From: Desulfurococcaceae archaeon AG1
GTDB lineage: Archaea > Thermoproteota > Thermoprotei_A > Sulfolobales > AG1
DNA length: 64,000 nucleotides
Direction: 5' to 3'
Assembly (NCBI GenBank): GCA_003116855.1
Contig: BEWT01000015.1
Span: 101,445-165,444 of the forward strand
The translations under genes were made by a program, and so were the position numbers. The notes beneath the pieces are model-generated. The model made no database searches and was not told the DNA's origin. It saw only the letters and a list, made by a program, of their open reading frames with translations. Below are positions 31,938-59,983 of the stretch, piece after piece. Position 1 is the first letter of the stretch; each line of letters begins with the position of its first letter.

Positions 31938-32249
31938 AGTAGCTGTTAAGGGGATCTATAATCGGTATGATACGTAGAACGATAAATAGCCCCACAACCC
32001 TAATGATCATTTTAACCTAAATCATTGAGGCAAGATCTATCTTCTATAGATAGTCAACGACACCAACGGGTATGGGGATATATAGTAAGTAAAATAAATA
32101 ATAAATAATGAATATTGTAAAGAGGATCAAGACCACATGGAGACATGTATGAACCTACCTCATGATACTACCTCACATAGTAGTTGCAGAGATAAAGTTC
32201 AACAGATATGCAGCAATACCATATAGATAGCATCAGATATAGATAAAGT
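31938..32249. other. Gap without recognised genes
   Basis: AT-rich sequence between the vapC relic and the transposon relic. I see no coding frame, tRNA or strong repeat. Together with 32411-32660 it forms an empty stretch around the relic. Confidence 0.5.
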
Positions 32250-32410
32250 TCGGGTTTCATAGCAGTTTGTATTTTTTGATACCAGCAGCTCAACTCCTGG
32301 CCTTATTAGCCCCCACACTTTGGGAGTATCTTCTATCCATAACTCTTCATCGCTTAGGATAATACAATGTCCTGGCTTTCTTTACCCTGCTTGCTTAGGT
32401 CTTTATAATA
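32250..32410 (-). mobile_element. tnpB 3'-end relic with right-end hairpin (most degenerate copy)
   Basis: Read on the minus strand it aligns block by block with the relics at 46287 and 59500. EELWIEDTPKVWGLIRPG stands where the others have EGELWVGVTPNGWRP. A weakened hairpin and the end block GCTATGAAACCCGAAC then follow. The more distant block with CCTGGCTTTCTTTACCCTGC also matches the 59.5-kb copy. Only the last part of the transposase gene and the right end remain. Confidence 0.55.
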
Positions 32411-32660
32411 TACCGCATTATAGATGTGTTTAATATTGGTGTTTTTATGGATGTGACTGATAAGTAATAGATATTAGATATTAATAGAAGAAGTATTAAG
32501 GGTTCACCTTAATGGATCATGTATCGTTTTTGCAGACTAACTATCTTTCCCTTGAGAGTTATTTCACCTGGGGTTCATATGACTGGAAGGGTAACTATAA
32601 GAGTTTTACTAAATCCTCTTATTTCTAAGGCTGGCGATTTCATATTGGTTTCATATGTAT

Positions 32661-46252: not shown

Positions 46253-46286
46253 AACATCCAGTAACCAAAATATTTAGGAGAGAGTA

Positions 46287-46440
46287 AGGGTTTAGGTTTC
46301 ATAGCGGTTGTTTTTATATCAACCGCTCTTCCCTTAGTTTCACTGGCCTCCACCCGTTTGGGATGACCCCAACCCGCAGCTCCCCCTCATAGCTTTGCCC
46401 TGGTTCACTGCTGTGGGAACTTCTACATCCTGGATCTACC
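46287..46440 (-). mobile_element. tnpB 3'-end relic with right-end hairpin
   Basis: On the minus strand the sequence reads EGELRVGVIPNGWRPVKLREERLI-stop in one frame, the same ending as the relic at 59500. It then forms a perfect 8-bp hairpin (CAACCGCT/AGCGGTTG; 46320-46327 with 46303-46310, 9-nt loop) and ends in GCTATGAAACC. Nearly the whole upstream part of the transposase gene is missing. It lies 35 nt after rmlC. Confidence 0.7.
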
Positions 46441-47436
46441 GTAAAAATAATAGAGCTTACACTGTGTTCTCATAGAACTATGAGTTTAATATCATTTTTA
46501 TAAACCCTCATGAAATCCGGAACAGTTGGTTACGGCTAACATAGACGGCTAATCTGTTGATGGGATGTTCTATATGATAGCATTCCAGCCTCGTCAGGCG
46601 CCTAAGAGCCTGTAAGGAAAACAGTATGATATGTATTATGTGCTAGGCTAAGGCTTTAAGGGTTTTATTAATCTCTTTAAGAGATCAATTTATAAGAACG
46701 CGTGTATATTGTGATATATTGTCATCACGGTTCTCAAGATCCTCTGTATCTATTGAGGTTTTGCACAGGCTAGCAGTGTTCACGATGCTCAAAGATTTGC
46801 TCCTGCGTGTCCAGACGATCTTAAGGCAGATCCCTAGGTTGTCTTGGCTCTCGGACAGTCTTAGAATAATCTCTTAAAACACGACTATGCCTTTGAGACT
46901 CAATCTCCAAGCTTCCAAGATGCCTTAGATTAAAGATTAATTTATTGTTCACCTTCAGTGCGAGGTATTTCGAGTCACGAAAGTAAACGGCTTGAGTCTA
47001 GCAGCGGTATCGGTGTGAAGGATTTTTTATCATTCCGCTGGCCTAACGTGAACTTTCACCATGCTAGGTTTCTCTCCCTTGCTATGGGAGGATTTTTGTG
47101 ATTAATTGACAAAGGCTCCTTATATCTATCAGGGATACTTATATTTGGCTTAGCCTAGTTCCACGTATTATGTGTGGAGAAAATATCTTCTTTTATTAAA
47201 TAGCACGCCTTTGGGTTAATGAATCATACTTTGGAGAGTAGATAAGGTAAAGTTATGGAAAATACATAGGCTTAATTAATAGCTTTAAACTCTAATAGAT
47301 TCTAATAAAGGCTTTTCTTAGGCAGATAGTTCTTATATGTTGATATCCCAATATGGATAGGCTTTTCTCGATTTGAGCAAATCGATCCGATGTTTTTATG
47401 TGTAAAGATCTTCACCACATATTAGATATATTCTGA
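46441..47436. other. 1-kb intergenic region with one possible small gene
   Basis: No recognisable gene in most of this stretch. One 52-codon frame (TTG 46719 to 46877; SSRFSRSSVSIEVLHRLAVF start, helical and basic) lies at leaderless distance from a good TATA box (AATTTATAAG, 46688-46697). It may be a small expressed protein. Nothing else was seen. Confidence 0.35.
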
Positions 47437-55549: not shown

Positions 55550-55633
55550 TTGAAATACCCCTGGAGACCTGGTTATGATCTAACAATCGATAGAATGATC
55601 AAGACAGCATTGCAGTATAACCCTGGGGCTGTT
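55550..55633 (+). pseudogene. Acyl-CoA synthetase, 5' fragment cut by the TnpB element
   Basis: TTG 55550 opens KYPWRPGYDLTIDRMIKTAL followed by QYNPGA, the expected N-terminal region of an ANL-family synthetase. The match ends at about 55633. The sense continues 1.5 kb later at about 57120 with DEIVYRTRSGVERYSYSKAYERM, which joins the large frame from 57188. The exact junction needs an empty-site sequence. Confidence 0.65.
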
Positions 55634-55668
55634 TTCTTTTTGATGTTCTCAGGAAATGTTTGTAAGCT

Positions 55669-57138
55669 TTGGAGATATCTTTAACCATTGGAATTTACAC
55701 TATTAGAGAAGGAAGGCTATTCACCATCAATACTATAGGGAAAGTTTATAAGGCCCTCACCAAACATATCCTGGTGGGCTGCTTCTTACAAGCATCCCTA
55801 GCGCTTGCTGACGATGGAGAAGATGCTTTGATTATTACGAGAACGGTTATTGTTAGATCTGAGAGGATACCTAAAAAGTTATTCAGGTTTTTCATTGAGC
55901 TTGAGGGTATGTATAGGAATATTGTTGAGCAGCTAGTAATACATGCTGCTAGGGAGGAGATAACGTCATTCATAAAGCTAAAGGCTTTAAAGTATAGGGA
56001 GATGCGTAACCTCTACCCACATTTGCCTTCCCACTATGTTCATACAGCTTGTCAGGATGCATCTACGAGGGTTAAGAGCTTCTTAAAATTGAAGAAAGAG
56101 GGATCAACGAATAAGGAATACCCTAGTGTTAGGAGGATCTCGATATGGCTTGACGATCATCTATGGAAATTAGATGGTTTAATGAGAATCGGTATATCAA
56201 CGCATAAAGGATGGGTTCATATAGATCTAATACCTCACAAGCAGTTCTATAGATACTATAACACTGGCTGGAGATTAGCTTCTGAGGCGAGGATAAAGCT
56301 TGATAGAAAGGAAAGAAGGTTGATCGTCTATCTCATTTTTAGAAAGGATGTTAGGTTATATAAGCCTAGTGGTTATATAGCTGTGGATGTTAATGAGAAC
56401 AATGTAGCAGTGCTTATAAACAGAAAGGCATATCTACTAGAAACAAATATTGAGAGAGTAACACTCGGCTATTATTATAGGAGGAAGAGGATTCAGGAGA
56501 AATACGATAAGATCTGTGGTGTTAAATGCCGCGCTAAGAGGAAGATCTTGAGGAAGCTTAGGGAGGAAGAGAGAAAGGAGGATACTAGGTGGAAAATAGC
56601 GAACATAATAGTTAGGGAGGCATTAAAACATGGATATGGTGTTGTTCTCGAGGATCTCGGTGATAAGCCTGCTACGAACATGATCTCTAGGATCAAGGAT
56701 GATCAGCTTAGACACAGGATCTTCCAAGCAGCGTTTAAAGGCATTCAGAGAGCTATTGAGGAGAAGGCTAAGGAGCACGGTGTACCAGTAATCTATATTA
56801 ATCCTAAGAACACATCAAAACAATGCCCAATACACAGGGTAGAAATAAGGTATAACGGCTCTAGAATAGGTGTATGCTCGCTGGGTAAGGAGAAGTGGCA
56901 TAGGGATGTAGTTGCATGCTATAATTTGTTATTCAAAGCCCTGGGTGGTGATGGGAGCATCGCTCCAAGCCACCCAGGGCTCAACCTAGATGGGAGCCCC
57001 ATGCCGTTGGGCTCGACGGCAGCCCATGACCTCACAGGGATCCCAAGATCCCTGTGGGCGAGGTTGAAGTCCCTGGATATGAGAGAACATCAAGCAATAT
57101 TAAAAATATCCAGGGACAAACGACGAGATAGTATATAG
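55669..57138 (+). CDS. tnpB: RNA-guided endonuclease TnpB family protein
   Basis: RuvC-type nuclease. Catalytic residues are intact: IAVDVNEN (D240), VLEDLGD (E328) and WHRDVVAC (D413), numbered from TTG 55669. A zinc-ribbon-like stretch (QCPIHR...VCSLGKEKWHRD) lies between the last two. The first about 50 residues are unlike the family, whose members start near IVRSERIPKKLFRFFIELEG; TTG 55828 is therefore a likely true start. The last codons (RRDSI and stop) seem to lie outside the element, in the disrupted synthetase gene. TnpB proteins cut DNA guided by RNA made from the element's right end. Confidence 0.88.
   Translation: MEISLTIGIYTIREGRLFTINTIGKVYKALTKHILVGCFLQASLALADDGEDALIITRTVIVRSERIPKKLFRFFIELEGMYRNIVEQLVIHAAREEITSFIKLKALKYREMRNLYPHLPSHYVHTACQDASTRVKSFLKLKKEGSTNKEYPSVRRISIWLDDHLWKLDGLMRIGISTHKGWVHIDLIPHKQFYRYYNTGWRLASEARIKLDRKERRLIVYLIFRKDVRLYKPSGYIAVDVNENNVAVLINRKAYLLETNIERVTLGYYYRRKRIQEKYDKICGVKCRAKRKILRKLREEERKEDTRWKIANIIVREALKHGYGVVLEDLGDKPATNMISRIKDDQLRHRIFQAAFKGIQRAIEEKAKEHGVPVIYINPKNTSKQCPIHRVEIRYNGSRIGVCSLGKEKWHRDVVACYNLLFKALGGDGSIAPSHPGLNLDGSPMPLGSTAAHDLTGIPRSLWARLKSLDMREHQAILKISRDKRRDSI
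57033..57056 (+). repeat. 10-bp hairpin in the 3' part of tnpB
   Basis: CACAGGGATC (57033-57042), loop CCAA, GATCCCTGTG (57047-57056). A perfect stem within the region that would be the scaffold of the guide RNA. Confidence 0.6.
57069..57117 (+). repeat. 12-bp inverted repeat at the element's right end
   Basis: GTCCCTGGATAT (57069-57080) and ATATCCAGGGAC (57106-57117), with 25 nt between. It marks the right end of the insertion and probably the last stem of the guide RNA before the guide sequence. Confidence 0.6.
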
Positions 57139-58862: not shown

Positions 58863-59462
58863 TTAAAGATCTCTATATATGTTGAATAGCATGGATATTG
58901 TTCTCTTTGTTGTCGGCTCTTTTCTCTCTACATATCTTCCCGCTATGTTTATATGCGTCCTCAAGCCTTTCAGAGAGGCTATGGCTTGTTCTACTGCTCT
59001 AGCCTCTTCCCTTGTGATTTGTTCCTTATTATCATAGCTGTGTTTCGCTATATATCTCTCTAGGTTCTCAGCTATTCTTCCCAGCTTCTCCCTATGGATC
59101 TCTAGGATCTGTTTTCTCTCGACCCCACCTCTACTCCTTAGGATCGATTTTAGGTGTTTTAGGCAGAAAACAGCCCCGGATCTTCTATAATCCTCAAGCT
59201 TGAGGCACTCTCTATAGAGCCTTATATATCTATCCTCAGCATCCTCGGAGTATCTACACATGAAACACACCTCCGAGGGATCCTTATCACACTCTACAAG
59301 CCTATCGAGAGATTCTAGAGAGCTTCTCAGAGCATCTAGATATAGTATTGAGACACCAAGCCTGTCATATAGCTTCTCAGCCGTGCCAAGCAATAGCCGT
59401 AGCCAGTTGCTTCTGATCTCATGATGGTTTATAAGGACTGATATTGAATCGCAGTTCTGCAA
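58863..59462 (-). CDS. Hypothetical protein with CxxC and CxxH (possible zinc site)
   Basis: 199 residues, mainly helical. CFMCRYSEDAEDRYIRLYRECLKLEDYR and, later, FCLKHLKSIL give two pairs (CxxC, CxxH) that could bind zinc; a DUF6062-like pattern comes to mind but is unproven. A second half of long helices (ENLERYIAKHSYDNKEQITREEARAVEQAI). ATG 59462 is close to TATA-like TATATAA at 59474-59480 on the minus strand. Function unknown. Confidence 0.65.
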   Translation of the reverse strand: MQNCDSISVLINHHEIRSNWLRLLLGTAEKLYDRLGVSILYLDALRSSLESLDRLVECDKDPSEVCFMCRYSEDAEDRYIRLYRECLKLEDYRRSGAVFCLKHLKSILRSRGGVERKQILEIHREKLGRIAENLERYIAKHSYDNKEQITREEARAVEQAIASLKGLRTHINIAGRYVERKEPTTKRTISMLFNIYRDL

Positions 59463-59499
59463 TGATGGAACATTATATAAGCTCTACTATTTTTATGGG

Positions 59500-59755
59500 G
59501 ATGCCCGCCCAACGATGAGGGTGGGGATAGAGACCCGAGGGGCGGGTTAAAGAAAAAAGCCCAGGATGTGGGGGTTTCCCCACAGCAATGAACCAGAGCA
59601 ATGCTATGAGGGGGAGCTGTGGGTTGGGGTCACCCCGAATGGGTGGAGGCCAATGATATGGGCTCCGATGAAAGGAGCCCTGAGGCCGAGGAAGCCAAGG
59701 GAAGAGCGGTTGGTATAAAAATACCACCGCTATGAAGCCCGAACCCCATCTCCCG
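59500..59755 (+). mobile_element. tnpB 3'-end relic with right-end hairpins (longest copy)
   Basis: Plus-strand frame EGELWVGVTPNGWRPM...RKPREERLV-stop matches the relic at 46287. A 42-nt extra segment contains a perfect hairpin, GGGCTCC (59660-59666) and GGAGCCC (59674-59680). The end hairpin AGCGGTTGGTAT/ATACCACCGCT (59705-59731, one bulge) is followed by GCTATGAAGCCCGAAC. Upstream, PTMRVGIETRGAG-stop is also in frame. The 59756-59983 gap beyond holds nothing recognisable. Confidence 0.68.
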
Positions 59756-59983
59756 CCGCGTCGAGCAGCAATAGCTATTACTCTTGAGGGCTTATATAGA
59801 TACTCGGCCGGATTGTTGTAGAAGCCTCGATATCTTGAAGAGTTCTCCCTGATTGGTGTTTATTCTTGGTTCTTTGTTGTTTCTTTTCTATATCTGGGGT
59901 TTCTATATGATTTTGTAGGATTGCTTGGTGAGAGACGTGTTGCTATGGTGAAGAGTGGAAATGCTGTAGAGAATCGGCTCTGT

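What the first reader, a model, noticed from the sequence alone, without database searches (positions are those of the whole stretch)
46287..46440. Dispersed family of tnpB 3'-end relics that keep only the guide-RNA-forming part
Three loci (32250-32410 minus, 46287-46440 minus, 59500-59755 plus) keep the same piece: the last transposase codons ending REERL(I/V)-stop, a right-end hairpin and the end block GCTATGAARCC. The 46- and 59-kb copies are well conserved over about 110 nt although the rest of tnpB is gone. In TnpB systems this segment makes the guide RNA, with the guide taken from DNA just outside the right end. Retention of only this segment could mean stand-alone guide RNAs working in trans with a TnpB elsewhere. 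Known: guide RNAs from the 3' end of tnpB. Inferred: that these are expressed or selected.
Basis: partly seen in the sequence, partly recalled or inferred. Interest (0 to 1): 0.66.

Follow-up and report, generated by a model that had tools for sequence, protein, structure and literature searches.

The report
Miniature transposons carrying only guide RNA
Two of the three spots flagged in this archaeal genome are copies of a tiny transposon (about 250-350 bases) that has lost both its protein genes but kept what looks like a complete guide-RNA gene, probably to borrow a DNA-cutting enzyme made elsewhere in the genome; the third is a badly decayed copy.

Summary
The 46-kb and 59-kb loci are real members of a family with about 30-35 copies in this 2.0-Mb archaeal genome. 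They are not bare 3' relics: nearly all copies also have a left end, so they are complete miniature elements of 234-359 bp (left end, TATA-like box, predicted guide-RNA scaffold, right end, then host DNA as guide). Full elements in relatives show the family is IS607-type (serine-recombinase TnpA plus TnpB), not IS605. One empty site in a relative gives a clean GCC|guide junction without target duplication. One same-family tnpB (443 aa, RuvC motifs intact) lies elsewhere in the genome. Protein-less copies occur in several other genera of the order; across them the scaffold stems covary (0 of 500 shuffles reach the observed score), and different internal deletions all spare the scaffold. I favour guide-RNA-only IS607 elements that use TnpB in trans to cut empty sites. 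Expression and activity are untested. The 46-kb copy looks dead (two stems deleted, TATA-like box mutated), the 59-kb copy intact, the 32-kb copy heavily decayed. Within this genome alone most stems show no covariation beyond shuffles, so any selection acts on lineages, not on each copy.

The parts
59396..59398 (+). GCC flanking the left end of the 59-kb copy: candidate target/TAM
   Evidence: GCC at this place in 21 of 24 aligned own copies (G in 24 of 24) and in nearly all copies of other genera; one empty site shows GCC next to the right-flank sequence
59396..59747 (+). Complete miniature IS607-type element, long form (59-kb copy, L001), including the GCC
   Evidence: Alignment of own-genome copies with both ends; interrupted ORF rejoins in frame
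59473..59481 (+). TATA-like box TTATATAAG, 27 nt before the start of the first predicted RNA stem
   Evidence: 25-28 nt spacing in 10 own copies including this one; same motif upstream of the tnpB start in L033
59500..59747 (+). Predicted guide-RNA (omega-RNA) scaffold: stem 1 CCCGCCC/GGGCGGG, core from about 59560, right-end hairpin
   Evidence: Covariation across 36 protein-less copies; stem 1 compared with coding copies
59566..59718 (+). Remnant of the last 50 tnpB codons (MWGFPHS...PREERLV-stop), no intact gene
   Evidence: tblastn to L033 TnpB, 88% over 50 codons
59706..59730 (+). Right-end hairpin GCGGTTGGTAT/ATACCACCGC
   Evidence: Sequence; helix 6
59748..59767 (+). Predicted guide of the 59-kb copy (ATCTCCCGCCGCGTCGAGCA), host DNA next to the right end
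   Evidence: Right boundary fixed by alignment; role inferred from known TnpB systems
46534..46536 (-). GCC flanking the left end of the 46-kb copy: candidate TAM
46287..46536 (-). Miniature element, short form (46-kb copy, L023), decayed: about 36 nt with stems 4 and 5 deleted, TATA-like box mutated to CAGTGTAAG
   Evidence: Alignments
46304..46326 (-). Right-end hairpin of the 46-kb copy
   Evidence: Sequence
46267..46286 (-). Predicted guide of the 46-kb copy (TACTCTCTCCTAAATATTTT)
   Evidence: Right boundary by alignment
32248..32470 (-). Heavily decayed copy; only the right end (about 32248-32300) is clearly recognisable
   Evidence: 44 nt at 84%

Best explanation
The loci are non-autonomous miniature elements of an archaeal IS607-type transposon. 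Internal deletions removed tnpA and tnpB but left a compact guide-RNA cassette: left end with a TATA-like box, omega-RNA scaffold, right end, with the guide taken from host DNA just beyond the right end. Shown: two-ended structure, copy number, IS607 affiliation, GCC junction without target duplication, stem covariation across genera, a same-family tnpB elsewhere in the genome. Inferred: the elements were moved by an IS607 TnpA in trans, and their RNA loads the resident TnpB, which cuts the GCC-plus-guide sequence of empty sites so that the element is copied back, raising retention and spread. Selection acts on lineages that can still move; individual insertions, such as the 46-kb and 32-kb copies, then decay.
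For: Both ends in nearly all aligned own copies. Full elements with IS607 TnpA (NF033518, 228.8 bits, cut-off 110) plus TnpB and the same ends in relatives. No Y1 transposase in the genome. Empty site in G177 with GCC|guide junction and no duplication; several interrupted ORFs rejoin in frame. The resident tnpB L033 is 443 aa with D207/E287/D363 kept. Covariation in 36 protein-less copies: score 0.215 against 0.143 shuffled (0/500), 73 double-change cells against 29, slid controls far lower. Different internal breakpoints (own long and short forms, two kinds in G027, one shared by G016/G036/G049/G094/G125, one in G032) all spare the core. TATA-like box 25-28 nt (10 own copies) or 33-35 nt (relatives) before stem 1 or the core. 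Scaffold core groups with the resident full copy in G016 and G027 and, loosely, in the own genome. Guide-RNA places outnumber close tnpB, e.g. 10:1 in G094 and 12:2 in G066.
Against: No transcript or activity data. Within the own genome covariation does not exceed shuffles for most stems, and stem 1 inside the relatives' short elements does not exceed shuffles. G001 and G123 hold copies but no intact tnpB of the family was found. One decayed element with both ends but no core exists (L208). Most searches used the core as query, which favours core-retaining copies. No cognate tnpA was found in this 94.8% complete assembly.
Confidence: 0.62

Rival explanations
1. Ordinary MITEs: the scaffold is kept only because it lies next to, or is part of, sequence that TnpA needs at the right end, and copies share it through recent transposition bursts. 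No RNA function.
For: Own copies drift without compensatory excess; many carry damaged frames and stems; some genomes keep copies without an intact tnpB.
Against: About 190-250 nt are kept, much more than a usual recombinase end; stems covary across genera, including internal stems 4 and 5; stem 1 takes different sequences in coding and protein-less copies; a TATA-like box stands at near-constant spacing.
Confidence: 0.2
2. The covariation and the match to the resident tnpB are inherited from full-length elements: short copies arise again and again from the local element, or are overwritten by gene conversion, so selection acts only on full copies.
For: Short copies group with the resident full copy in G016 and G027, and G016 cores are 87-89% identical to their own full copy.
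Against: Stem 1 sequences such as GACGCCTC/GAGGCGTC and CCCGCCC/GGGCGGG are not seen in any full copy examined, where coding holds CCTGCCC/GGGCAGG in most, and the GACGCCTC short lineage is shared by genomes of three families.
Confidence: 0.14
3. Some copies have been taken over by the host as regulatory guides or antisense RNAs.
For: Several insertions lie inside or beside genes or tRNA genes.
Against: No insertion site shared between species was seen; guides are simply adjacent host DNA; the resident TnpB of the family keeps its catalytic residues, so a nuclease-dead repressor is not indicated.
Confidence: 0.04

Closest known systems
IS607-family transposons with TnpB (e.g. the RAGATH-18 reRNA systems, PMC11061315)
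   Same: Serine-recombinase TnpA plus TnpB, guide adjacent to the right end, TAM next to the left end
   Different: Here the RNA overlaps the tnpB 3' end (in PMC11061315 it is separate), the candidate TAM is GCC instead of AGGAG or GAGGG, no Rfam family matches, and most copies have no protein gene
IS200/IS605 TnpB with omega-RNA from the tnpB 3' end (PMC8612924, PMC10278001)
   Same: RNA overlapping the 3' end of tnpB, guide taken beyond the right end
   Different: No Y1 transposase in this genome; the full elements in relatives encode an IS607 TnpA
ORF-less IStrons (PMC4227781)
   Same: IS elements with their ORFs removed that persist in genomes
   Different: IStrons keep a group I intron and were not described there as guide-RNA sources
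Stand-alone omega-RNA loci reported for IscB (recalled from memory; paper not held)
   Same: Guide RNAs without a linked nuclease gene
   Different: IscB, bacterial; here a two-ended IS607 element in several archaeal genera

Membership tests
IS607 family | TnpA serine recombinase with MerR-like HTH | tested here: met
   Met for full elements of the family in relatives (L081: NF033518 228.8 bits; Resolvase plus MerR). The copies here and L033 lack tnpA
IS607 family | Insertion without target-site duplication | tested here: met
   One empty site in G177; in-frame rejoining
IS200/IS605 family | Y1 (HUH) transposase TnpA | tested here: not met
   No PF01797 match in the genome; TnpA of full relatives is a resolvase
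MITE / non-autonomous element | Short, no gene, both ends of an autonomous relative, many copies | tested here: met
TnpB omega-RNA | Structured RNA conserved at the tnpB 3' end up to the right end | tested here: met
   Covariation in protein-less copies across genera; not beyond shuffles within the own genome
TnpB omega-RNA | TAM beside the left end and guide beyond the right end, together forming the empty site | tested here: met
   (one empty site)
TnpB omega-RNA | Expressed, bound and used by TnpB | not testable with these tools
   No RNA or biochemical data
RNA-guided TnpB (resident nuclease) | RuvC D/E/D residues and zinc finger | tested here: met
   L033: TNB domain PF07282 50.1 bits, D207/E287/D363, PDB TnpB matches; NF040570 63.8 bits, under its cut-off of 100
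Known Rfam families | Match at or above gathering score | tested here: not met

The most novel reading that the evidence does not exclude
A long-lived lineage of protein-less 'guide-RNA-only' IS607 transposons lives in several archaeal families, each copy carrying its own promoter and an omega-RNA whose scaffold keeps pace with the resident TnpB, so that one nuclease gene serves tens of dispersed guides as a distributed homing drive.
Probability: 0.4. Interest if true: 0.8.

Novelty: new variant of a known kind. Interest (0 to 1): 0.58.

Why it matters
TnpB is thought to help its own transposon persist by cutting empty sites. If miniature elements carry only the guide-RNA gene and draw on one TnpB, RNA-guided retention can be parasitised in trans, and a genome can hold about 30 natural guides for one nuclease. 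That allows a direct test of why omega-RNA and tnpB separate, and is a natural parallel to CRISPR systems with separate effector and guides. It also points to an archaeal TnpB with a short candidate TAM, GCC.

Tried and rejected
IS605 membership: rejected (no Y1 transposase; IS607 TnpA in relatives). Same-family copies in viruses: no TnpB relative and no right-end pattern in viral contigs. Guides aimed at viruses: none for the 46-kb guide; two 18-nt exact matches for the GC-rich 59-kb guide, which I take as chance in a collection of this size; not followed. Nucleotide empty sites for an own-genome copy within the same family: nothing useful, only tRNA matches; found instead within another genus, where a second candidate (L178) was too diverged to read. 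Rfam: no match. Several key papers on TnpB/IscB were not held, so precedence could not be checked fully.

Full report
Observation. The 46-kb and 59-kb loci match each other well, and the 59-kb copy finds 38 matching stretches in the own genome. The 32-kb locus shares only the right end. Aligning the copies with their flanks shows a common left end, GCCRTAGCCARCTGTTTC.., and right end..TATGAARCCCGAACCCC, with no conservation outside them. The elements are 234-359 bp long: a long form near 350 bp and a short form near 285 bp that lacks stem 1. In window coordinates the two copies are 59396-59747 (+) and 46287-46536 (-).

Family. The genome holds one tnpB of this family, L033 on contig 6, with the same ends, 443 aa, and the expected D, E and D positions. 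Its tnpA has been lost. In relatives from other families of the order the same ends enclose a serine-recombinase TnpA and a TnpB; the TnpA is called IS607 by NCBIfam at twice its cut-off. No Y1 transposase is present in the own genome. The only resolvase found in the own genome belongs to a different IS607 element on contig 4. The assembly is 94.8% complete, so a cognate tnpA may be missing from it.

Target. GCC sits at the left boundary in 21 of 24 well-aligned own copies and in nearly all copies of other genera, with no G before it in the own set. One insertion in G094 is matched by an empty site in G177..ACTTGAAGCC|CGGGATTGAG.. against ..ACTTGAAGCC[element]TAGGATTGAG.., so there is no target duplication. 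Among own copies several interrupted ORFs (L001, L003, L008, L028) rejoin in frame. The sequence right of the element, the predicted guide, is therefore simply the host DNA that stood next to GCC.

Scaffold. Across 36 protein-less copies my six named stems pair in 90.6% of cells against 85.7% for shuffles, with 18 pairs changed on both sides against 11.0 and a covariation score of 0.215 against 0.143 (0 of 500 shuffles for each); slid structures score 0.04-0.08. RNAalifold finds three of these stems unaided. The stems were named by me from these sequences, which favours them somewhat, and the shuffles do not keep relatedness. Within the own genome alone the signal is not beyond shuffles for most stems, and stem 1 within the relatives' short lineage is not either. 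Stem 1 nevertheless differs as a pair between coding copies (mostly CCTGCCC/GGGCAGG), own short copies (CCCGCCC/GGGCGGG) and the relatives' short copies (GACGCCTC/GAGGCGTC).

Promoter and deletions. A TATA-like box lies 25-28 nt before stem 1 or the core in the 10 own copies where it matches strictly, and the same motif precedes tnpB in L033; in relatives the left end's TTTATAAG lies 33-35 nt before stem 1. The deletions that made short elements differ between the own long and short forms, G027, G032 and the lineage shared by G016/G036/G049/G094/G125, yet all spare the core. A left-end search in the own genome found two truncated left ends and no intact two-ended copy without the core; one decayed core-less two-ended remnant turned up later (L208).

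Distribution. In a sample of 197 genomes of the order 25 have scaffold matches, with 1-2 close tnpB each in most of those examined and none intact found in G001 and G123. Selected genomes hold 2-12 scaffold places. Cores of short elements group with the resident full copy in G016 and G027 with good support, and at least four label changes are forced on the tree. This fits pairing with the resident TnpB, but also repeated local origin or gene conversion.

Verdict. The elements are established as IS607-type miniature elements that retain the guide-RNA part. Working in trans with TnpB is the best-supported function, at 0.62, and rests on comparative evidence only. The 46-kb copy lacks stems 4 and 5 and has a mutated TATA-like box, and is probably dead; the 59-kb copy is the one to test.

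Noticed in passing
window 55622-57122 (+): A different TnpB-only element: ORF 55669-57138 (489 aa), left end near GGGGCTGTTTTCTTTTTGATGTT, right hairpin CCCTGGATAT..ATATCCAGGG. Three close copies elsewhere (L035-L037); its ends resemble those of the intact IS607 element on contig 4 (L080/L031).
   Followed up: partly
L005 and L015, left flanks: Pieces of that second IS607 family's ends lie directly beside insertions of the first family.
   Followed up: no
L133 (G027) TnpB: TnpB orthologue with N instead of D at the third RuvC position (EMNRQK): possibly nuclease-dead.
   Followed up: no
L004 right flank; L014 flanks: Insertions directly beside or between tRNA genes.
   Followed up: no
L098 (G049:C53): Insertion inside what reads like an amino-acid permease gene; keeping GCC gives a plausible rejoined frame (..LLTGRVAFALARED..).
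   Followed up: partly
L203, L204 (viral contigs): Exact 18-nt matches to the 59-kb guide; probably chance.
   Followed up: no
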